The notes beneath the pieces were generated by a model that was not told the origin of the DNA, did not search any database, and saw nothing but the letters and a program-made list of their open reading frames with translations. Shown one piece after another: positions 55,641 through 62,996 of a stretch of DNA of 64,000 bases (within the stretch, counting starts at the first letter, position 1; every line of letters starts with the position of its first letter). The position numbers and the translations under genes were made by a program. The DNA is from Kutzneria chonburiensis. Lineage in GTDB: Bacteria > Actinomycetota > Actinomycetes > Mycobacteriales > Pseudonocardiaceae. The stretch is taken from positions 5,394,001 to 5,458,000 of the forward strand of contig NZ_CP097263.1 of assembly GCF_028622115.1 (NCBI RefSeq), in the 5' to 3' direction.

Positions 55641-56240
55641 GTGACCAGGCCACGGCTGACCCAGCAGGAGCGCACCGAACGCACGCGTGAGCTGCTGCTG
55701 GACGCCACCGTCGACTGCCTGGTCGAGCTGGGCTACGCCAAGACCTCGACCAACGAGATCTGCCGGCGGGCCGGCGTGTCGCGGGGCGCCCAGCAGCACC
55801 ATTTCGCCACCAAGGCCGAGCTGATGGCCGATGCCATCGAGCACCTGGTCAGCAAGCTGCTGGCCAGCATGAGCGAGCACCCGCCGTCGTCACTGCCCGG
55901 CCCGGACCGGGTGGCCATGGGCATCGACATGCTCTGGCAGGGCTATTCGGGCTCGCTGTCCACCGCCGTGATGGAGCTGTGGGTGGCCGCCCGCACCGAC
56001 CCCGAGCTGCGGGCGGCGATGCACCCGATCGACAAGGGCCTGGCCCGCCGGACCTCGGAGCTGTTCCGGGAGATGCTGGGCGATGGCGTGACCCTGGACC
56101 AGCCCGACGTGCCGCTGTGGCTGACGGTGAACCTGATCCGGGGCCTCGCCCTGGACGCCATGCTCGGCGGCGATCCGGTCCGCCGCGATCAACTGCTCCA
56201 GGAATGGAAGACGATCGCCGTCAAAACCTACGGCGTTTAG
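55641..56240 (+). CDS. TetR-family repressor
   Basis: This 199-aa repressor has an N-terminal helix-turn-helix (RTRELLLDATVDCLVELGYAKTS, EICRRAGVSRGAQQHHFATKAEL) and a C-terminal ligand domain. GTG 55641 is the first good start after the operator. It probably senses an acyl-CoA or related ligand and controls the divergent dehydrogenase/racemase operon. Its stop meets the convergent lipase stop. Confidence 0.87.
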   Translation: MTRPRLTQQERTERTRELLLDATVDCLVELGYAKTSTNEICRRAGVSRGAQQHHFATKAELMADAIEHLVSKLLASMSEHPPSSLPGPDRVAMGIDMLWQGYSGSLSTAVMELWVAARTDPELRAAMHPIDKGLARRTSELFREMLGDGVTLDQPDVPLWLTVNLIRGLALDAMLGGDPVRRDQLLQEWKTIAVKTYGV

Positions 56241-57484
56241 CAGTGCCTCCGCGGCGCCTTGAGCGTGTCCAGCAGCCGGGCCAGCACGTTCGGGTTGCCC
56301 GGCAATGAGAAGTGGTCGACACCTGGGTTGTCGTTGAGCACGTAGCTGTGGCACTTCATCGCCGCCCACACCCGGTTGGCGTTGTTGGTGATGTCCTCCT
56401 GATTGCTGTCGCCGCTCATCGTGATGAACTGACTCTGGTCGACCAGCTGGCCGATCTTCAGGTTCGGCAGCGCCGCGCCGACAATGGTCGGCAGACCGGA
56501 ACCCTTTTCGGCGGTCACGTCCACATCCGGGAAATATTTCGGCGTGCTGAACCGGACAAAACCGATGTAGTACCGGGCGATCTCGGCTTCCGTGGTCAAC
56601 CCGGCATCGCGCAGCAGCTGCGGCCAGTCCCGCGGGGTGTAGCTCTTCCCGGTTGAATTGTCCTTGATGACCGTCTCCCGGTCACCGAAGATCGTCGGGT
56701 CGGAGGCGCTCAGATAGGTCGACGGCGCGGTGAGGTACAGCTGGGCGCTGCTGACCGCGTTCTCGATCGTCTTCGGATAACCGAAGTCCGGCACGTTCAA
56801 TCCGGTGAACAACACGGAGTAGAGCAGCCCCTGGCCCGGGAAGTTGCCGGCCAACGGGGTGAAGCCGTGGATGTAGGTGTCACGCCAGGCCTTGCTGGTG
56901 TGGGTCAGCAGGTACTGGATGTAGATCGGCCCGTTGGAATGGCCGATCAGCTGCACCGGCCGGTTGCCGTTCTGGTGGTACGTCTGCTCGACCAGCGCCT
57001 TGGCCCGGGCGAGAAAGCCGCCCTGGTCGGGCGTGAGCCGGGCGTCGTAGCCGGCCACCCGGATGTCCCGGTTCCGGGTGTAGCCGGCCGATTCCAGGGT
57101 CTTGTACAGCGGCTCGTAGAACGGCGCGCTCTCGGTCCGGCCGTAGTCGATCACGTTGACCCGCACGCCCTGCTGCTCGGCGAAGCGCAGCGGCATCGGC
57201 TTGGCCGGATTGTCGTCGTAGCGCAGGGTTTCCAGCTCGTCCTGGCACACCTGGCTGAACGCGCTGGGCTGGTCGTTCTGGAACCAGTCCTGGAAGCCGC
57301 CCGAGCGTGGGCAGTTCGGGTCGGTGGTCTGGTTCCGCACCGTCACCTGGAGCTTGGTCAGGTGGAAGGCCGGGAACAGCACGACCGGCGTGCGGCCGGG
57401 TGAGGATGCCTCGGCCACACCCGGCAGCACGGCGAGCGCGACGGCGGCGGCCACCACCGCGCGGAGGAGGAACCTGGGGGTCAT
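56237..57484 (-). CDS. secreted LCAT-like lipase/acyltransferase
   Basis: This exported alpha/beta hydrolase of about 415 aa has a signal peptide (about 1-25) and PVVLFPAFHLTKLQV near the mature N-terminus. The nucleophile elbow is in LIGHSNGPIYIQYLL, a glycine-rich PLAGNFPGQG follows, and DHFSLPGNPNVL carries the likely His. It fits the lecithin:cholesterol acyltransferase family, whose bacterial members act on lipids. ATG 57496 is four codons upstream. It is oriented like the ABC exporter operon, 40 nt downstream of it. Confidence 0.78.
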   Translation of the reverse strand: MTPRFLLRAVVAAAVALAVLPGVAEASSPGRTPVVLFPAFHLTKLQVTVRNQTTDPNCPRSGGFQDWFQNDQPSAFSQVCQDELETLRYDDNPAKPMPLRFAEQQGVRVNVIDYGRTESAPFYEPLYKTLESAGYTRNRDIRVAGYDARLTPDQGGFLARAKALVEQTYHQNGNRPVQLIGHSNGPIYIQYLLTHTSKAWRDTYIHGFTPLAGNFPGQGLLYSVLFTGLNVPDFGYPKTIENAVSSAQLYLTAPSTYLSASDPTIFGDRETVIKDNSTGKSYTPRDWPQLLRDAGLTTEAEIARYYIGFVRFSTPKYFPDVDVTAEKGSGLPTIVGAALPNLKIGQLVDQSQFITMSGDSNQEDITNNANRVWAAMKCHSYVLNDNPGVDHFSLPGNPNVLARLLDTLKAPRRHC

Positions 57485-57523
57485 GCCGGCCAACATAACG
57501 CCGGCCGGCCGGGCGAGCAGTCC

Positions 57524-59188
57524 TCAGTGCGTGACGGGGAAGGAAAGTCGGTCCGGCAGGTGGACGACCCTGTCCGCCAACGCCACCAACCGCGGGTCGT
57601 GGGTGATCAGGATGGTGCTGCGGCCGCCGGCCAGCCGCCGCAGCGGCTCGATCACGCGCCGCGCCGCCGGCCCGTCCAGGCTCGACGTCGGCTCGTCCAG
57701 CACGAGCACCGGTGCGTCGGCCAGCAGCGCCCGAGCAATGGCGATGCGCTGCCGCTGTCCGCCGGACAGGCGATACCCGCGGTCGCCGACGAGCGTGTCG
57801 TAGCCGTCGGGCAGGCTCTGCACGAAATCCTCGGCATCGGCGGCCCTCGCCGCCGCGACGATCTCGTCGCGGGTGGCGTCCGGCCGGCCGTAGGCGATGT
57901 TGTCCGCGATGGTGCCGTGGAACATCAACGTCTCCTGGCTGAGCAGCGATATGTCTCGACGGAGCGCGGCCAGCGGCAGCGTCCGGACGTCCACGCCGTC
58001 CAGCCGCACGGTGCCCTCGGACGTGTCGTAGAACCGCAGCAGCAGCCTGGCCACCGTGGATTTGCCGGCGCCGCTCTCCCCGGTCACGGCCACCAGTTCA
58101 CCGGGCCGCACGATCAGCCGGAAGCCGTCGAGCACCGGCTCGTCCGTGTCGGGATAGCGGAAACCCACGTCGTGGAAGGAAACCAGGCCCTTCGCGCGAC
58201 CCGGATCGACCGCGGTCGGCTCGTCGCGGACGGTCGGCTCGGCGTCCAGCAGCTCCAGCAGGCGCGCCGAACCGCTGGTGGCCTGCGCGACGGTCAGCGA
58301 CAGTTGGCCGAGCGCCCGGATCGGCGGATACAGGTAGCCGAGGAAGGCGGCGAACGCGAAAAGACCGCCAATCGTGAGCCGGTGCTGGGCGATCTCCCAC
58401 GCGCCGAAACCGATCACCGCCAGCACGCTCACCGTCTCCATCACGTACACCATGGCCGGGTACAGCGCGCCGAACCGGGCCAGCGCGAGCTTGCTGCGCA
58501 TCCAGCCGAGGCCGAGCTCGCCGACCCGTCCGGGCCGGCCGTGTACCTGGACCAGCGCCATGTTGGCCAGGTCCTCCTCGATCACGCCCGTGAGCAGGCC
58601 GTGCCGGGCCCGTTCGACCTGGGCCAGCTTCGTCACCCGGCGGGCGAACCAGCGGGCGAGCAGCACGAAACCCGGGATCACCGCGACTGCCGCGAGGGCC
58701 AGCTCCCAGCTCAGCAGCACCGCGGCCGCCGCGAAGAACACCACGCTGACCAGCGAGGTGAACGTCTGCACGACGCCGGAGCCGACCAGCGCCTCCACCG
58801 ACTCGACGTCACTGGTCAGACGGGCGACCAGGTCGCCGCGCTGCCGCTTGGCGAAGAAGTCCGGCGACAACGTCCGCAGATGGGCAAACACCTTGTCACG
58901 CAAGGAAAGCAGGAACCGCTCGCCGGCCAGCGCGGTCAGGTACTGGCCGACGGAGCCGACCACGCCGGACAGCAGCGCCACGCCGGCCCACACCGCCGCC
59001 GGCCGCCAGAACGCGGCCAGATCCCCGTTCTTCAGCACGGTGTCGGTGATGCCGGAGAACAGCCAGATGGCCGTCGTGTCACAGCCGGCTGCCGCCACCA
59101 GCAGCAGCGCGGCGGCGCCGAGCAGCCGGCGGTTGGACCGGGCCAACGGCCAGAACCGGGCGAAGACCACCCGTGCCGGTGCCAGCAC
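57524..59188 (-). CDS. ABC half-transporter (exporter type) next to the small-peptide gene
   Basis: This half-transporter of about 554 aa has a six-helix ABC membrane domain (residues 15-310) and a nucleotide-binding domain: Walker A GESGAGKST, LSGGQRQRIAIARALL and VLVLDEPTSSLD. It has no peptidase-C39 domain, so it would not cleave a leader itself. AAGGAGGG precedes GTG 59188, which I prefer over 59203. It lies downstream of a 48-codon gene, separated by a hairpin, and of a two-component system on the same strand. Export or self-protection for the peptide is the natural inference. Confidence 0.85.
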   Translation of the reverse strand: MLAPARVVFARFWPLARSNRRLLGAAALLLVAAAGCDTTAIWLFSGITDTVLKNGDLAAFWRPAAVWAGVALLSGVVGSVGQYLTALAGERFLLSLRDKVFAHLRTLSPDFFAKRQRGDLVARLTSDVESVEALVGSGVVQTFTSLVSVVFFAAAAVLLSWELALAAVAVIPGFVLLARWFARRVTKLAQVERARHGLLTGVIEEDLANMALVQVHGRPGRVGELGLGWMRSKLALARFGALYPAMVYVMETVSVLAVIGFGAWEIAQHRLTIGGLFAFAAFLGYLYPPIRALGQLSLTVAQATSGSARLLELLDAEPTVRDEPTAVDPGRAKGLVSFHDVGFRYPDTDEPVLDGFRLIVRPGELVAVTGESGAGKSTVARLLLRFYDTSEGTVRLDGVDVRTLPLAALRRDISLLSQETLMFHGTIADNIAYGRPDATRDEIVAAARAADAEDFVQSLPDGYDTLVGDRGYRLSGGQRQRIAIARALLADAPVLVLDEPTSSLDGPAARRVIEPLRRLAGGRSTILITHDPRLVALADRVVHLPDRLSFPVTH

Positions 59189-59206
59189 GACACCCTCCTT
59201 CATGGT

Positions 59207-59242
59207 GGTGGGGCCGGTCCCCCGACGGACACCGGCCCCACC
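59207..59242 (-). terminator. attenuator-like hairpin between peptide gene and exporter
   Basis: GGTGGGGCCGGT (59207-59218) pairs perfectly with ACCGGCCCCACC (59231-59242). It lies between the 48-codon gene and the exporter, close to the exporter ribosome site. It could make the short gene more highly expressed than the exporter. Confidence 0.65.
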
Positions 59243-59257
59243 GTCACCGGATCCGGC

Positions 59258-59404
59258 TCAGCGGCGGCGCGCCGGCACGAAGATCACGCCCTGGGCCGGC
59301 CGGCCCAGCACCACGGTCGCCCAGCCGGGGCCGCACGGCAGACCCGGGATCGTGGTGACCGGCGCCGCCACGACCGGAACGGTGGGAATGCAGTTCGCTG
59401 CCAT
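59258..59404 (-). CDS. 48-aa peptide between two-component system and exporter
   Basis: ATG 59404 follows GAAGGAG at ideal spacing. The 48-residue product begins MAANCIPTVPVVAAPV and ends VFVPARRR (preceded by I). It has Cys5 and Cys24, many Val/Pro/Gly and a basic tail. It has no signal peptide, so release would need a transporter, and an exporter gene follows. The promoter carries the direct repeats shared with the response-regulator and 68-aa peptide promoters. It could be a signalling peptide, bacteriocin or RiPP precursor; I do not recognise a family. Confidence 0.6.
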   Translation of the reverse strand: MAANCIPTVPVVAAPVTTIPGLPCGPGWATVVLGRPAQGVIFVPARRR

Positions 59405-59440
59405 GGGAAACTCCTTCTCGTTGTCGGATCGACAAGAGAA

Positions 59441-59474
59441 ACGCTATGCGGCAACGCCTTTCCACGATGTTTCC
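59441..59474 (-). promoter_or_regulatory. response-regulator-type promoter of the 48-aa peptide gene
   Basis: On the minus strand it reads GGAAAC-N5-GGAAAG-N11-TAGCGT. The 11-nt period of the half-sites is typical of OmpR-family tandem binding. The leader holds GAAGGAG. Confidence 0.7.
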
Positions 59475-59501
59475 AGCGACTGAGAAGTATCTGAGTGAAG
59501 C

Positions 59502-60608
59502 TCAGGTGAACTCGACCCGGACGGTGAGGCCGCCGTCGCGGCGGGCCTTGGCGTGCACCCGGCCGCCGTGGGCCCGCACGATGGACTGCACAATGGAAAG
59601 ACCCAGTCCGGTGCCCTCGTCGCTGGTCCGACCGCCGCCGCGCCGGAACGGCTCGAACAGCTCGGCCACCTGGTCGGGATCCACCACCGGCCCCGAATTG
59701 GACACGACCAGCCCACGCGCGGGATCGGTGCGCACCCGCAGTTCACCGCCGTCCACGTTGTGCCGCACGGCATTGCCGATGAGATTGCCGACCAGTTGCC
59801 GCAGCAGCATGGAATCCCCGAGCACCTCGCACGGCACCAACTGCTCGGTCACCGTGAGCCGGCGGCGCTGGATCGCCTCGGTCTGCTCGCCCAGCTGCTC
59901 CTCGACCAGGGCGTGCAGCGCGACCGGCTCCCGGTGCTCCAGTCCACGATCGCTGCGGGCCAACAACAACAGCCCGTCGATCAGCCGTTCGCTGCGCCGG
60001 TTCGCGTCCAGCAACTTCTGCACCACGTCCGGATCGGCGTCGGCCAGGCCGATCTGCACCGCCGCCCGCTGGATGGCCAGCGGCGTGCGCAGCTCGTGCG
60101 AGGCGTTGGCGATGAACCGGCGCTGGCTCTCGAACGCCGCCTCCAGCCGGGCCAGCATGTCGTCGAAGGTGCTGGCCAGCTCGGTCAGTTCGTCGGCCGG
60201 GCCGGCCAACGCGATGCGCTCGTGCAGGTTGTCCGAGGACAGCCGCCGCGCGGTGGCGCTGATCCGGTGCAGCGGGGCGAGCACCCGCCCGGAGACCCAC
60301 CAGCCGACGGCGATCGCCAGCACGGCCAGCACCGGCAGCGACACCGCCGACACCACCAGCAGCTTGTCCAGCACGGTCTGACTGGAGACCTCGGCGATCT
60401 GGGCCGGCGTCACCGTCACGTCGTAGGGCTCGGTCTCGACCGGCACGCCATCGCCGAAGACGACCCCCTCCGCGCCGACCGCCGAGGACAGCTGAGACAC
60501 CAGGTTGTTGCCCAGCAACAGGTACACCACGACCATCAGCACCAGGCCCGCGGCGAACACCAGCAGCCCGTACAGGGCGGTCAGTCTGGTTCGGACGGTC
60601 AGCCGCAC
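59502..60608 (-). CDS. HAMP sensor histidine kinase
   Basis: This 368-aa kinase has TM1 (about 13-35), an extracytoplasmic sensor of about 50 residues, TM2 (about 84-105), HAMP, HisKA (NASHELRTPLA, about residue 170) and HATPase_c (NLIGNAVRHN, DEGTGLGLSIVQSI). GTG 60608 overlaps the response-regulator end by 10 nt. The small sensor could read a peptide or envelope stress. It probably controls the small-peptide regulon. Confidence 0.9.
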   Translation of the reverse strand: MRLTVRTRLTALYGLLVFAAGLVLMVVVYLLLGNNLVSQLSSAVGAEGVVFGDGVPVETEPYDVTVTPAQIAEVSSQTVLDKLLVVSAVSLPVLAVLAIAVGWWVSGRVLAPLHRISATARRLSSDNLHERIALAGPADELTELASTFDDMLARLEAAFESQRRFIANASHELRTPLAIQRAAVQIGLADADPDVVQKLLDANRRSERLIDGLLLLARSDRGLEHREPVALHALVEEQLGEQTEAIQRRRLTVTEQLVPCEVLGDSMLLRQLVGNLIGNAVRHNVDGGELRVRTDPARGLVVSNSGPVVDPDQVAELFEPFRRGGGRTSDEGTGLGLSIVQSIVRAHGGRVHAKARRDGGLTVRVEFT

Positions 60609-61264
60609 GGGACGACCCGGTACCCGACACCGGGCACGGTCTCGATCGGCGGCGGGTCGCCGAGTTTGGCCCGCAGCTTGGACATCGCCACCCGAACCGC
60701 GTTGGTGAACAGGTCGGCATGCTCGTCCCAGGCCTGAGCCAGCAGCTGCTCGGTGCTGACCACGGTGCCGCCGGCCCGCATCAGCACCTCGAGCACGGCG
60801 AACTCCTTGGGCGTCAAGCGAATCCGCCGGCCGCCTCGCGTGACGGCATGGTTGGCCGGATCCAGCACCAGGTCCGCAGCGTGCAGCACCGGCGGCAGCG
60901 CCACCGGCGACCGCCGGCCCAGCGCCCGTACTCGGGCCAGCAGCTCGGGGTACTCGAACGGCTTGGTGAGATAGTCGTCCGCGCCGAGCTCGAGGCCGTC
61001 CACCCGATCATCCAAAGTAGACGACGCGGTGAGCATCAGCACCCTGGTCCGGGAGCCCCGTGCGACCAGCTCGCCGCACAGCACGTCGCCGTGCACACCG
61101 GGCAGGTCCCGGTCCAGCACCACCACGTCGTAGTCGTGGACGCCGAGGCGTACCTGGGCAGCCAGGCCGTCATAGCAGACGTCCACCGCCATCGCGGCCG
61201 CGCGCAGCCCGGACGCCACCAGGTCGGCGAGCACCCGCTCGTCCTCGACCACCAGCACTCGCAT
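60599..61264 (-). CDS. OmpR/PhoB-family response regulator
   Basis: This 221-aa regulator has a receiver domain (VVEDE, VVVLDRDLPG with the phospho-acceptor Asp, YLTKPF) and a winged-helix output domain (LTPKEFAVLEVLMRAGG, TNAVRVAMSKLRAKLG). ATG 61264 follows GGGAGGCGAG. Its own promoter carries the same direct repeats as two small-peptide promoters, so it is probably autoregulated. Confidence 0.92.
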   Translation of the reverse strand: MRVLVVEDERVLADLVASGLRAAAMAVDVCYDGLAAQVRLGVHDYDVVVLDRDLPGVHGDVLCGELVARGSRTRVLMLTASSTLDDRVDGLELGADDYLTKPFEYPELLARVRALGRRSPVALPPVLHAADLVLDPANHAVTRGGRRIRLTPKEFAVLEVLMRAGGTVVSTEQLLAQAWDEHADLFTNAVRVAMSKLRAKLGDPPPIETVPGVGYRVVPCG

Positions 61265-61279
61265 CTCGCCTCCCGCGCG

Positions 61280-61313
61280 AGGGTATCCCGCACCACCTTT
61301 CCAGAATGTTTCC
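61280..61313 (-). promoter_or_regulatory. autoregulated promoter of the response regulator
   Basis: On the minus strand it reads GGAAAC-N5-GGAAAG-N11-TACCCT. This matches the spacing of the two small-peptide promoters exactly. The start codon is 15 nt beyond the -10. Confidence 0.7.
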
Positions 61314-61321
61314 GAACCGGC

Positions 61322-61354
61322 GAAACGTTCCGGAAACACCGCCTCGGCTAGAAC
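61322..61354 (+). promoter_or_regulatory. promoter of the 68-aa secreted peptide
   Basis: The plus strand reads GAAAC-N5-GGAAAC-N11-TAGAAC, with ATG 61361 only 6 nt after the -10, so the transcript is probably leaderless. With the opposite site (61298-61313) it forms a large inverted repeat between divergent genes. Confidence 0.68.
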
Positions 61355-61360
61355 CGGTCC

Positions 61361-61567
61361 ATGAGAACCGTCGTGCAGGCGCTGGCGATCGTGCCCGTGC
61401 TGGCGGCTGCCCTGGCGCTGGGCTCCCTGCTGGGCAACGGCGCCGCCCCGGCGCGGTCGTCGGACATCGCCCGGTGCATCCGCGGGCTGCCGGCTGGACA
61501 CAAGGCGCATCAGGCGGTCGCGGCGTGTGTGCAGTCCTCGCCCGTCATCAGGAAGCCGCGCCACTGA
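61361..61567 (+). CDS. 68-aa secreted or membrane-anchored small peptide
   Basis: The 68-aa product has an N-terminal hydrophobic segment (TVVQALAIVPVLAAALALG, residues 3-21) that looks like a signal peptide or anchor. The mature part has Cys39 and Cys56, which could form a disulfide (SSDIARCIRGLPAGH ... VAACVQSS). It is divergent from the response regulator and shares its promoter architecture. It could be the sensed signal, an accessory protein or a secreted effector; no family is recognised. Confidence 0.6.
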   Translation: MRTVVQALAIVPVLAAALALGSLLGNGAAPARSSDIARCIRGLPAGHKAHQAVAACVQSSPVIRKPRH

Positions 61568-61571
61568 GGGC

Positions 61572-62996
61572 TCAGCGCAGTCGCCGCCGGCCCCGCCACA
61601 CGGAAGCCAACCGCTGCACGCCCTCCAACACGGCATCCGGGCCGGCGGCGAACGACACACGTACCCGATCGAGCTGGCCGTCCGTGGCCGAGAACACCGA
61701 TCCCGGCGTGATCAGCACGCCGCCCCGCCGTGCGGCCTCGGCCACCGCCAGGGCGTTGCCCTCGGGCAGCCGCACCCAGAGCGACGCGCCGCCGTCCGGC
61801 TCCACCCAGGTCCAGTCGGGCAGGTGGGTGGCCAGCAGGTCGGACGTCCACTCGTAGCCGGCGCGCAGCTGGCCGGCCCGGGTCCGCCGCGCCCTCGGCA
61901 CGTACTCCAGCAGCCGCAGCGCGGCCAGCTGGCTCGGCACCGAGCTGCCCATGTCGGCCGACGACCGGTAGGTCGCCAGCTGCTTGACGAAGTCCACAGT
62001 GGACCGGATCCAGCCGACCCTGAGCCCGCCCCAGAACAGCTTGGACAGCGAGCCGATGGACAGCACGGCCGCGTCCGGGGCCAGCGAGGCCATCGACGGC
62101 GGCGGCGGGCCGGTGAACAGCGTGTCCACTGAGGACAGATCCTCGATCAGCGCGGTGCCGGTCTCGGCGACCGCGGCGGCGATCACCTTGGCCACCGCCG
62201 GCCGCAGGTTCACGCCGACCGGATTGTGCACGGTCGGGGCCAGGTACAGCAGCCGCGGCCGACGGCTGCGCAGCAGGCGGACCAGCACGTCCGCGTCCAC
62301 CCCGTCGTCGCGCAGCGGAATCGTGCGCAGCCGCGCGCCCCGGTCCCGAAACGCGTCCAGCGCGCCCCAATTGGTCGGATCCTCCACCAGCACTTCGTCG
62401 CCGGGCGCCAGCATCGCGGTGGCGATCAGCTGCAACGCCTGCTGCGAGCCACTGGTCACCAACACCTGGTCCGGTTCGGAAATCAGGCCGTCCTCGGTGC
62501 AGTGCCGGGCAATCGCGGTGCGCAGCTGCGGCAGGCCGGCCGGATGGTAGCCGTGGCCGCGAACCCAGCGGCGCAGATCGTCCGGGCTGACCGAGCCGAC
62601 CACATCGGCCACCCAGTCCTGGCCGGGCAGCGCCGCGCCGGACAGGTCGATCACCGAGCTGTCGGCCGCGCCGCTCAACGGGTTGAGCCGGGTGGCCGAG
62701 CCGGGCAGCCGCGGCTGGGACACGCCGCGCACCCGGGTTCCGCTGCCCTGCCGCGAATCCAGTAAACCGAGTGATCGCAGCGTGGTGTACGCGGTGACCA
62801 AGGTGCCGCGGCTGACCGCAAGGGTGCTCGCCAGTGCCCGTTCGGACGGCAGCAGGGTGCCCGGCGGCAGTTCGCCGGAGGAGATCAACGCGGTCAGCGC
62901 GGCGGCGAGCTGACGGTGCAGCGATTCGCGCGCGTCGGTGCACCAGCCGTCGAGCAGCCGGGCCAACGCGGCCTCGCCGATTCTGGGGTTGTCCAA
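61572..62996 (-). CDS. MocR-type GntR regulator with aminotransferase domain
   Basis: This 474-aa protein has a GntR winged helix (about 25-95: LPPGTLLPSERALASTLAVSR) fused to a fold-type I aminotransferase domain (about 120-470). The PLP Lys is in SIGSLSKLFWGGLRVGW, and SSGSQQAL-like (TSGSQQALQLI) and PTVHNPVGVN motifs are present. MocR proteins bind PLP and external amines and control vitamin B6, GABA or taurine genes. It diverges from the prim-pol gene across a gap with GTCCAA/TTGGAC elements (about 62994-63028) that could be binding sites. Confidence 0.88.
   Translation of the reverse strand: MDNPRIGEAALARLLDGWCTDARESLHRQLAAALTALISSGELPPGTLLPSERALASTLAVSRGTLVTAYTTLRSLGLLDSRQGSGTRVRGVSQPRLPGSATRLNPLSGAADSSVIDLSGAALPGQDWVADVVGSVSPDDLRRWVRGHGYHPAGLPQLRTAIARHCTEDGLISEPDQVLVTSGSQQALQLIATAMLAPGDEVLVEDPTNWGALDAFRDRGARLRTIPLRDDGVDADVLVRLLRSRRPRLLYLAPTVHNPVGVNLRPAVAKVIAAAVAETGTALIEDLSSVDTLFTGPPPPSMASLAPDAAVLSIGSLSKLFWGGLRVGWIRSTVDFVKQLATYRSSADMGSSVPSQLAALRLLEYVPRARRTRAGQLRAGYEWTSDLLATHLPDWTWVEPDGGASLWVRLPEGNALAVAEAARRGGVLITPGSVFSATDGQLDRVRVSFAAGPDAVLEGVQRLASVWRGRRRLR

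What the first reader, a model, noticed from the sequence alone, without database searches (positions are those of the whole stretch)
57524..61567. Two-component regulon with two small peptides, an exporter and three matching promoters
Three promoters share an exact layout: GGAAAC-N5-GGAAAG-N11-TACCCT before the response regulator, GGAAAC-N5-GGAAAG-N11-TAGCGT before a 48-aa peptide gene, and GAAAC-N5-GGAAAC-N11-TAGAAC before a divergent 68-aa secreted peptide. Tandem half-sites at an 11-nt period fit OmpR-type regulators. The 48-aa gene is followed by an attenuator-like hairpin and an ABC exporter. Kinase, regulator, two Cys-pair peptides and exporter together look like a compact peptide signalling or bacteriocin/immunity system. 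I do not know it as a described family.
Basis: partly seen in the sequence, partly recalled or inferred. Interest (0 to 1): 0.88.

Follow-up and report, generated by a model that had tools for sequence, protein, structure and literature searches.

The report
Exported peptide operon under two-component control
This soil-bacterium locus appears to make a tiny peptide together with its own membrane exporter, under a sensor-regulator pair that shares a DNA code; it belongs to a widespread, apparently undescribed family of peptide-exporter pairs whose peptides tend to share a short head but have very different tails.

Summary
The three promoter repeats are the only matches in the window (0.02 expected) and in the 10.4-Mb genome. 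The layout recurs at orthologous promoters in two other genomes; in one (G022, another genus) all three promoter types carry it, including one before a related 43-aa peptide gene and exporter. A variant precedes four paralogous peptide genes.

The larger finding lies outside the window. The ABC exporter belongs to a supported clade found in Pseudonocardiaceae, Streptomyces, Actinomadura, Nonomuraea and others. Nearly every fetched member is preceded by a 25-68-aa peptide gene, usually with a strong stem-loop between. Many peptides share a head (about M-[STAG]-[FLI]-x-[KRQ]-[LIV]-x-P); low-complexity tails differ by exporter subclade: Pro/Lys, Gly/Trp, Arg/Trp/Cys, His/Asp/Gly, Pro/Arg. pN/pS is 0.29 in the head and 0.73 in the tail, but 0.89 overall in the window's own Pro/Arg branch. 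None of 13 tested peptides passes a Pfam or NCBIfam cut-off.

Best reading: the exporter secretes the peptide, and this branch is switched on by an autoregulated OmpR-type system. An antimicrobial role is plausible, untested. The 68-aa gene has no detectable homologue; it stands where relatives have a lipoprotein gene. A classical attenuator found no support.

The parts
60599..61264 (-). OmpR-family response regulator, 221 aa
   Evidence: Response_reg and Trans_reg_C; orthologues 79% in G005 and 77% in G022
59502..60608 (-). Sensor histidine kinase (HAMP, HisKA, HATPase_c); its start overlaps the end of the regulator gene by 10 nt
   Evidence: orthologues 65% in G005 and 55% in G022
59258..59404 (-). 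48-aa peptide gene with ribosome-binding site (AGAAGGAG)
   Evidence: positional counterpart of a 43-aa gene in G022 and of short peptide genes before exporters of the same clade
59207..59242 (-). 15-bp stem-loop between peptide stop and exporter start
   Evidence: z -3.7; no Rfam match in 57000-62000
57524..59203 (-). ABC exporter (membrane domain + ATPase, no peptidase domain found); likelier start GTG 59188
61280..61313 (-). Regulator promoter: GGAAAC 61313-61308, GGAAAG 61302-61297, -10 TACCCT 61285-61280
59441..59474 (-). Peptide-exporter promoter: GGAAAC 59474-59469, GGAAAG 59463-59458, -10 TAGCGT 59446-59441
61321..61354 (+). Divergent promoter: CGAAAC 61321-61326, GGAAAC 61332-61337, -10 TAGAAC 61349-61354
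61361..61567 (+). 68-aa ORF with signal-peptide-like start and two Cys; probably leaderless; at the place of the lipoprotein gene in relatives

Best explanation
The 48-aa gene and the exporter form one transcription unit. The peptide is the product and the exporter secretes it, probably recognising the peptide's N-terminal head (inferred from the family). The stem-loop ends most transcripts after the peptide gene, so much peptide and little exporter is made (inferred). The kinase-regulator pair senses an outside signal; the phosphorylated regulator binds two half-sites 11 nt apart that stand in for a -35 box, and activates its own operon, the peptide-exporter operon and the divergent secreted-protein gene (the sites and their conservation are shown; binding and activation are inferred). 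The tails look like secreted antimicrobial or surface-active peptides, so a stress- or competitor-induced effector is the most likely role (inferred, weak).
For: Shared promoter layout in the window, in G022 at all three promoter types (12-13 of 14 positions, p at most 0.002) and in G005 at both tested promoters (13 and 11 of 14), and as a variant at four paralogous peptide promoters (11 of 14, p 0.006-0.02). Exporter clade 100/100 in a tree of 49 members and 13 outgroups that I chose, with peptide type following subclade. Peptide gene upstream in 44 of 57 clade loci by rule, 11 more by eye; 9 of 52 other exporters by rule, none of them low-complexity. Head motif in 37 of 105 distinct peptides against a mean of 0.06 in residue shuffles. 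pN/pS 0.29 in codons 2-10 and 0.73 beyond, over 32 peptides in five groups. Stem of 8 bp or more after 51 of 57 peptide genes. Tandem peptide genes in three loci (L059, L066, L185), z after the first 0.2, 1.0, -1.1 and after the second -3.4, -2.0, -3.0. No maturase among ten neighbours scanned; neighbours differ between lineages.
Against: No expression, export or activity data. The window's own peptide fits the head motif only loosely (MAANCIP) and has no close homologue by sequence (best hit elsewhere E 0.0018). The Pro/Arg group, the window's paralogues, has pN/pS 0.89 over four peptides, so selection on the protein is not shown for this branch. The Gly/Trp group shows no lower pN/pS in its head (0.87 vs 0.73). 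Peptide promoters of six other lineages lack the operator, and the regulator promoters of the four paralogous systems fit poorly (8-9 of 14, not significant). Six of 57 genes lack an 8-bp stem and 14 of 57 do not reach z -2. Four His/Asp/Gly peptides of Streptomyces are net negative (-5 to -7), unlike most antimicrobial peptides.
Confidence: 0.55

Rival explanations
1. The peptide is a pheromone: exported, sensed by the adjacent kinase, and amplifying its own operon, as in peptide quorum sensing.
For: Same operator at the kinase-regulator operon and the peptide operon; regulator and kinase beside peptide and exporter in five loci (window, L046, L047, L048, L166).
Against: Of 29 exporter loci searched, 20 have no related regulator or kinase in the fetched stretch and four Streptomyces loci have only a distant regulator (36-39%) some kilobases away; the tails are long, repetitive and fast-evolving; the same kinase family in G005 and G022 stands beside a MacAB-like cassette.
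Confidence: 0.18
2. The small ORF is a leader peptide whose translation controls read-through into a drug exporter.
For: A stem-loop follows the ORF in most loci; Pro-, Arg- and Lys-rich runs can slow ribosomes (recall); weak protein-level selection in the window's branch.
Against: No competing antiterminator pairing (mean z 0.06; 1 of 51 below -2); head conserved at protein level in four of five groups; tandem peptide genes share one final stem; no Rfam match in 57000-62000.
Confidence: 0.12
3. The exporter is a general drug or lipid exporter of an envelope-stress regulon, and the peptide is a small helper protein that stays with it.
For: Best-scoring solved relatives are P-glycoprotein types, with MsbA types further down; the regulator family elsewhere stands beside a MacAB-like cassette.
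Against: Clade-specific low-complexity tails and tandem peptide genes are unusual for a subunit; the peptides have no evident membrane segment (inspection only).
Confidence: 0.12

Closest known systems
Nisin-type autoregulated bacteriocin operons (NisRK, recall)
   Same: Small peptide gene, stem-loop with presumed read-through, ABC exporter, OmpR-type regulator and kinase, presumed autoregulation
   Different: No modification enzyme, protease or immunity gene recognised beside it; much shorter head; most loci lack the two-component genes
Double-glycine bacteriocins with C39-peptidase exporters (recall)
   Same: Conserved N-terminal part and variable C-terminal part, dedicated exporter
   Different: No C39 domain found on the exporter; no double-glycine leader seen in the head
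Streptomyces PhoP PHO boxes (PMC7866108, passages seen)
   Same: OmpR/PhoB-family regulator with 11-nt direct-repeat units
   Different: Half-site GGAAA(C/G), 11-nt spacing to the -10, and different targets
Actinobacterial two-component systems with an accessory lipoprotein, such as CseABC (PMC9739842, passages seen)
   Same: Lipoprotein gene next to regulator and kinase; one with a MacAB-like cassette is divergent in G005 and G022
   Different: In the window the cassette is absent from that place and only a 68-aa ORF stands there

Membership tests
OmpR/PhoB-type two-component system | Receiver plus winged-helix regulator, HisKA/HATPase kinase in one operon | tested here: met
OmpR/PhoB-type two-component system | Direct-repeat operators of 10-11 nt period at target promoters, conserved in relatives | tested here: met
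   not seen at six peptide promoters of other lineages, and not significant at the regulator promoters of the paralogous systems
OmpR/PhoB-type two-component system | Regulator binds these sites | not testable with these tools
   needs footprinting
Double-glycine class II bacteriocin | C39 peptidase domain on the exporter | tested here: not met
   membrane and ATPase domains, no peptidase match at E up to 1
Double-glycine class II bacteriocin | Double-glycine leader | tested here: inconclusive
   none seen in the heads by inspection; no leader model was run
Modified peptides (RiPP) | Maturation enzyme near the precursor | tested here: inconclusive
   None among ten neighbours scanned from seven loci nor recurring in 15 neighbourhoods compared with each other; the other neighbours were not scanned and distant enzymes are not excluded
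Leader-peptide attenuator | Competing antiterminator structure | tested here: not met
Known protein family | Match of the peptide to Pfam or NCBIfam | tested here: not met
   13 peptides: the 48-aa, six, six; only one weak Pfam hit (LCE, E 0.089, below cut-off)
Antimicrobial peptide | Kills or inhibits other cells | not testable with these tools
   composition only

The most novel reading that the evidence does not exclude
Across actinomycetes one ABC exporter clade carries a single large class of secreted peptides: a fixed head of about eight residues that the exporter reads, and an interchangeable, fast-evolving tail that has separately become Pro/Arg-, Pro/Lys-, Gly/Trp-, Arg/Trp/Cys- or His/Asp/Gly-rich, the same compositions as animal host-defence peptides. 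The window shows one branch under dedicated two-component control.
Probability: 0.4. Interest if true: 0.86.

Novelty: new variant of a known kind. Interest (0 to 1): 0.72.

Why it matters
If true, it adds an unnamed peptide-exporter class. The exporter occurs in 51 of 199 sampled genomes of a genus inferred to be Streptomyces and in 57 of 297 of the window's own family. Gene finders and searches for modified peptides could miss the peptides because they are short, low-complexity and lack recognised maturases. It offers ready-made head-tail designs to test as secreted antimicrobials, and a compact regulon with a readable operator.

Tried and rejected
A 48-aa protein search of relatives found nothing beyond chance-like hits; the family came only through the exporter. 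The 68-aa ORF: 8 of 150 genomes had matches, but apart from the window's own none was better than E 0.002 and all seven lay in longer frames; similarity to the lipoproteins is only suggestive (E 0.036 for one comparison), and tblastn against related loci gave nothing better than E 0.096. Attenuator tested and not supported. Solved structures gave only the general exporter fold. A plasmid search gave one record, unannotated there. Paper searches found no description of the peptide-exporter family; they are word searches of open papers, seen as listings, and cannot prove absence.

Rows dropped and choices by eye: all 107 peptides entered (105 distinct) were picked by eye from candidate lists. 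Of the 50 later ones, 14 were not the rule's first choice (L229, L230, L231, L233, L239, L253, L255, L257, L259, L262, L268, L269, L273, L276). In L066, L187 and L190 a leading double Met was shortened by one residue. These choices may favour the head motif, and related sequences inflate its count. Of the 55 loci L229-L283 I left out: L244 (no peptide seen), L254 (not assessed then; a MSFHK-type peptide was seen), L232 (same as L231), L277 (same as L084), L264 and L270 (start unsure). In one search the rule's hit for L199 is doubtful and its best pick for L204 is not the peptide used; L056 is cut by its contig end; L191 has none; the 52 comparison exporters are 52 of the 75 other loci. The tree used 49 of the 57 clade loci and 13 of those 75 (a 14th, L099, was skipped for stops).
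Full report
Check of the observation. The three promoter-like elements are present where stated. Allowing one mismatch, the pattern has three hits in the window against 0.02 expected. Without mismatches the whole 10.4-Mb genome has only these three, and 33 of 36 other genomes searched have none. The regulator (60599-61264) is an OmpR-family protein, the kinase (59502-60608) has HAMP, HisKA and HATPase domains, and the exporter (57524-59203) has membrane and ATPase domains but no peptidase match. The 48-aa and 68-aa ORFs match nothing in Pfam or NCBIfam. The genus looks like Kutzneria; that name is recall and comes from no call.

Conservation of the promoter code. I scored 14 positions in 150-nt upstream regions against 500 dinucleotide shuffles each. 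The window promoters score 14, 14 and 13. In G022, another genus, an orthologous regulator (77%) lies about 7 kb from a 43-aa peptide gene and an exporter 64% identical to the window's. Its regulator, divergent lipoprotein and peptide promoters score 12, 13 and 13 (p at most 0.002; the regulator's -10 sits one base further off). In G005 the regulator promoter (orthologue 79%) scores 13 and the divergent lipoprotein promoter 11 (p 0.012). In a paralogous branch (own genome second copy, G003, G002, G309; regulators 58-60%) all four peptide promoters carry a variant, about yGAGAC-N5-yGAAAC-N11-TAACGT (11 of 14; p 0.006-0.02), but the four regulator promoters there score only 8 or 9 and are not significant. 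Further regulator promoters: L014 (73% regulator) 12, p 0.004; L019 (71-72%) 10, p 0.086; L016 (65%) 9, not significant. The divergent secreted-protein promoter of G006 scores 10 (p 0.116). Six peptide genes of other lineages (G248, G293, G146, G018, G617, G498) score 9 or 10, not significant. So the code is real and conserved near the window's system, weaker in paralogues, and not a feature of the wider peptide family.

The 68-aa gene. In G005 and G022 the divergent gene is a lipoprotein-like protein of 168 and 178 aa with Cys-containing repeats, followed by MacA-like and MacB-like genes (MacB_PCD and FtsX in G022, a peptidoglycan-binding domain in the G005 MacA-like protein; the lipoproteins themselves have no Pfam match). 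The window ORF starts in the same place after the same type of promoter, but has no lipobox and only weak similarity. I read it as a reduced counterpart; that is inference.

The peptide-exporter family. Upstream of exporters related to the window's there is almost always a short peptide gene. Genomes with such an exporter: 57 of 297 in the window's family (E at most 1e-130), 19 of 394 across the class (1e-125; 15 of 296 in an overlapping draw), 51 of 199 in the genus of G617 (inferred Streptomyces; 1e-120), 29 of 150 in the family of G448 (inferred Streptosporangiaceae; 1e-120). Peptides were looked for only at fetched loci. Named examples are Actinomadura craniellae, Streptomyces misionensis and three other Streptomyces and Nonomuraea gerenzanensis. 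By a fixed rule 44 of 57 clade loci have a candidate against 9 of 52 other exporters, and low-complexity candidates are 26 against 0. Eleven Gly/Trp peptides were missed by the rule for weak ribosome-binding sites and were seen by eye; one locus is cut by its contig end and one has none. Of the later 55 loci (L229-L283), 54 have a candidate and one has none seen; these were judged by eye. Regulator and kinase of the window's kind stand beside the pair in 5 of 29 loci; four Streptomyces loci have a distant regulator some kilobases off, and 20 have neither in the fetched stretch. G022 is among the 20 because its pair lies just beyond that stretch.

The peptides. Compositions range from Pro/Arg and Pro/Lys through Gly/Trp, Arg/Trp/Cys and His/Asp/Gly, and follow exporter subclades. 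The clade is separated from 13 outgroup exporters, chosen by me, with 100/100 support. A head of the form M-[STAG]-[FLIV]-x-[KRQ]-[LIVMF]-(x)-P occurs in 37 of 105 distinct peptides, with a mean of 0.06 in shuffled residues; a looser form in 76 of 105 against 16. Relatedness and choice of starts by eye inflate these counts. Over 32 peptides in five groups, pN/pS is 0.29 for codons 2-10 and 0.73 beyond; four groups show the contrast, the Gly/Trp group does not. Whole-gene ratios are 0.45-0.55 in four groups, 0.72 in the Gly/Trp group, 0.22 in one close pair and 0.89 in the four Pro/Arg peptides nearest the window's branch, so protein-level constraint is not shown for that branch. A stem of at least 8 bp follows 51 of 57 peptide genes, and 43 of 57 have z below -2. 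Three loci have two tandem peptide genes, with the stem after the second. The neighbourhoods of 15 loci share nothing beyond local synteny and a distant regulator; ten neighbours scanned against Pfam are ordinary enzymes, a helicase, a polymerase and the like, or unmatched, with no RiPP maturase.

Mechanism. Shown: recurring unit of peptide, stem and exporter; conserved head in most groups; diverging tails; shared operator in the window's branch. Inferred: export by the adjacent transporter, head recognition, partial termination, activation by the regulator, and an effector role. The attenuator reading predicts pairing that competes with the stem; none was found (mean z 0.06, 1 of 51 below -2). 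A pheromone role for the window branch remains open.

Comparison with the known. It works like autoregulated bacteriocin operons (recall), but lacks the C39 exporter of double-glycine bacteriocins, and no maturase was recognised. The operator resembles PHO boxes in period only (PMC7866108, passages seen; PMC9739842, passages seen). Ten paper searches found no description (listed under Tried and rejected). PMC12797237, seen as passages, concerns other peptides.

Noticed in passing
L086, L087, L088 upstream of the peptide gene: In three Streptomyces loci the peptide-exporter pair follows genes that read like a ferric-reductase-type membrane protein, an FMN-binding protein and an ApbE-like protein (read by eye, no family search).
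   Followed up: no
L169:7898-9757 and the similar gene in L172: A prolyl-oligopeptidase-family gene (Peptidase_S9) lies on the other strand beside the pair in Pro-rich peptide loci (81% alike in the two); it may be synteny or a partner.
   Followed up: partly
L046 (own genome, C1:117000-131000): A second, paralogous peptide-exporter operon divergent from its own regulator-kinase pair, with a 41-aa Pro/Arg-rich peptide.
   Followed up: partly
L199 (G487): By eye, a divergent low-complexity ORF (His, Lys, Pro/Thr/Val repeats) lies upstream of the exporter instead of a co-directional one.
   Followed up: no
L043:6173-6433 and L044: Regulators 72-73% identical to the window's stand beside small secreted-type proteins (86 aa in L043, no Pfam match), another variant of the divergent partner.
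   Followed up: partly
window 61572-62996: MocR-type regulator (GntR plus aminotransferase domains) next to the 68-aa gene.
   Followed up: no
window 56237-57496: Lecithin:cholesterol-acyltransferase-family protein downstream of the exporter.
   Followed up: no
G739, G772, G788, G825, G845, G880, G881: Some genomes carry three or four exporters of this clade, suggesting several peptide systems in one strain.
   Followed up: no
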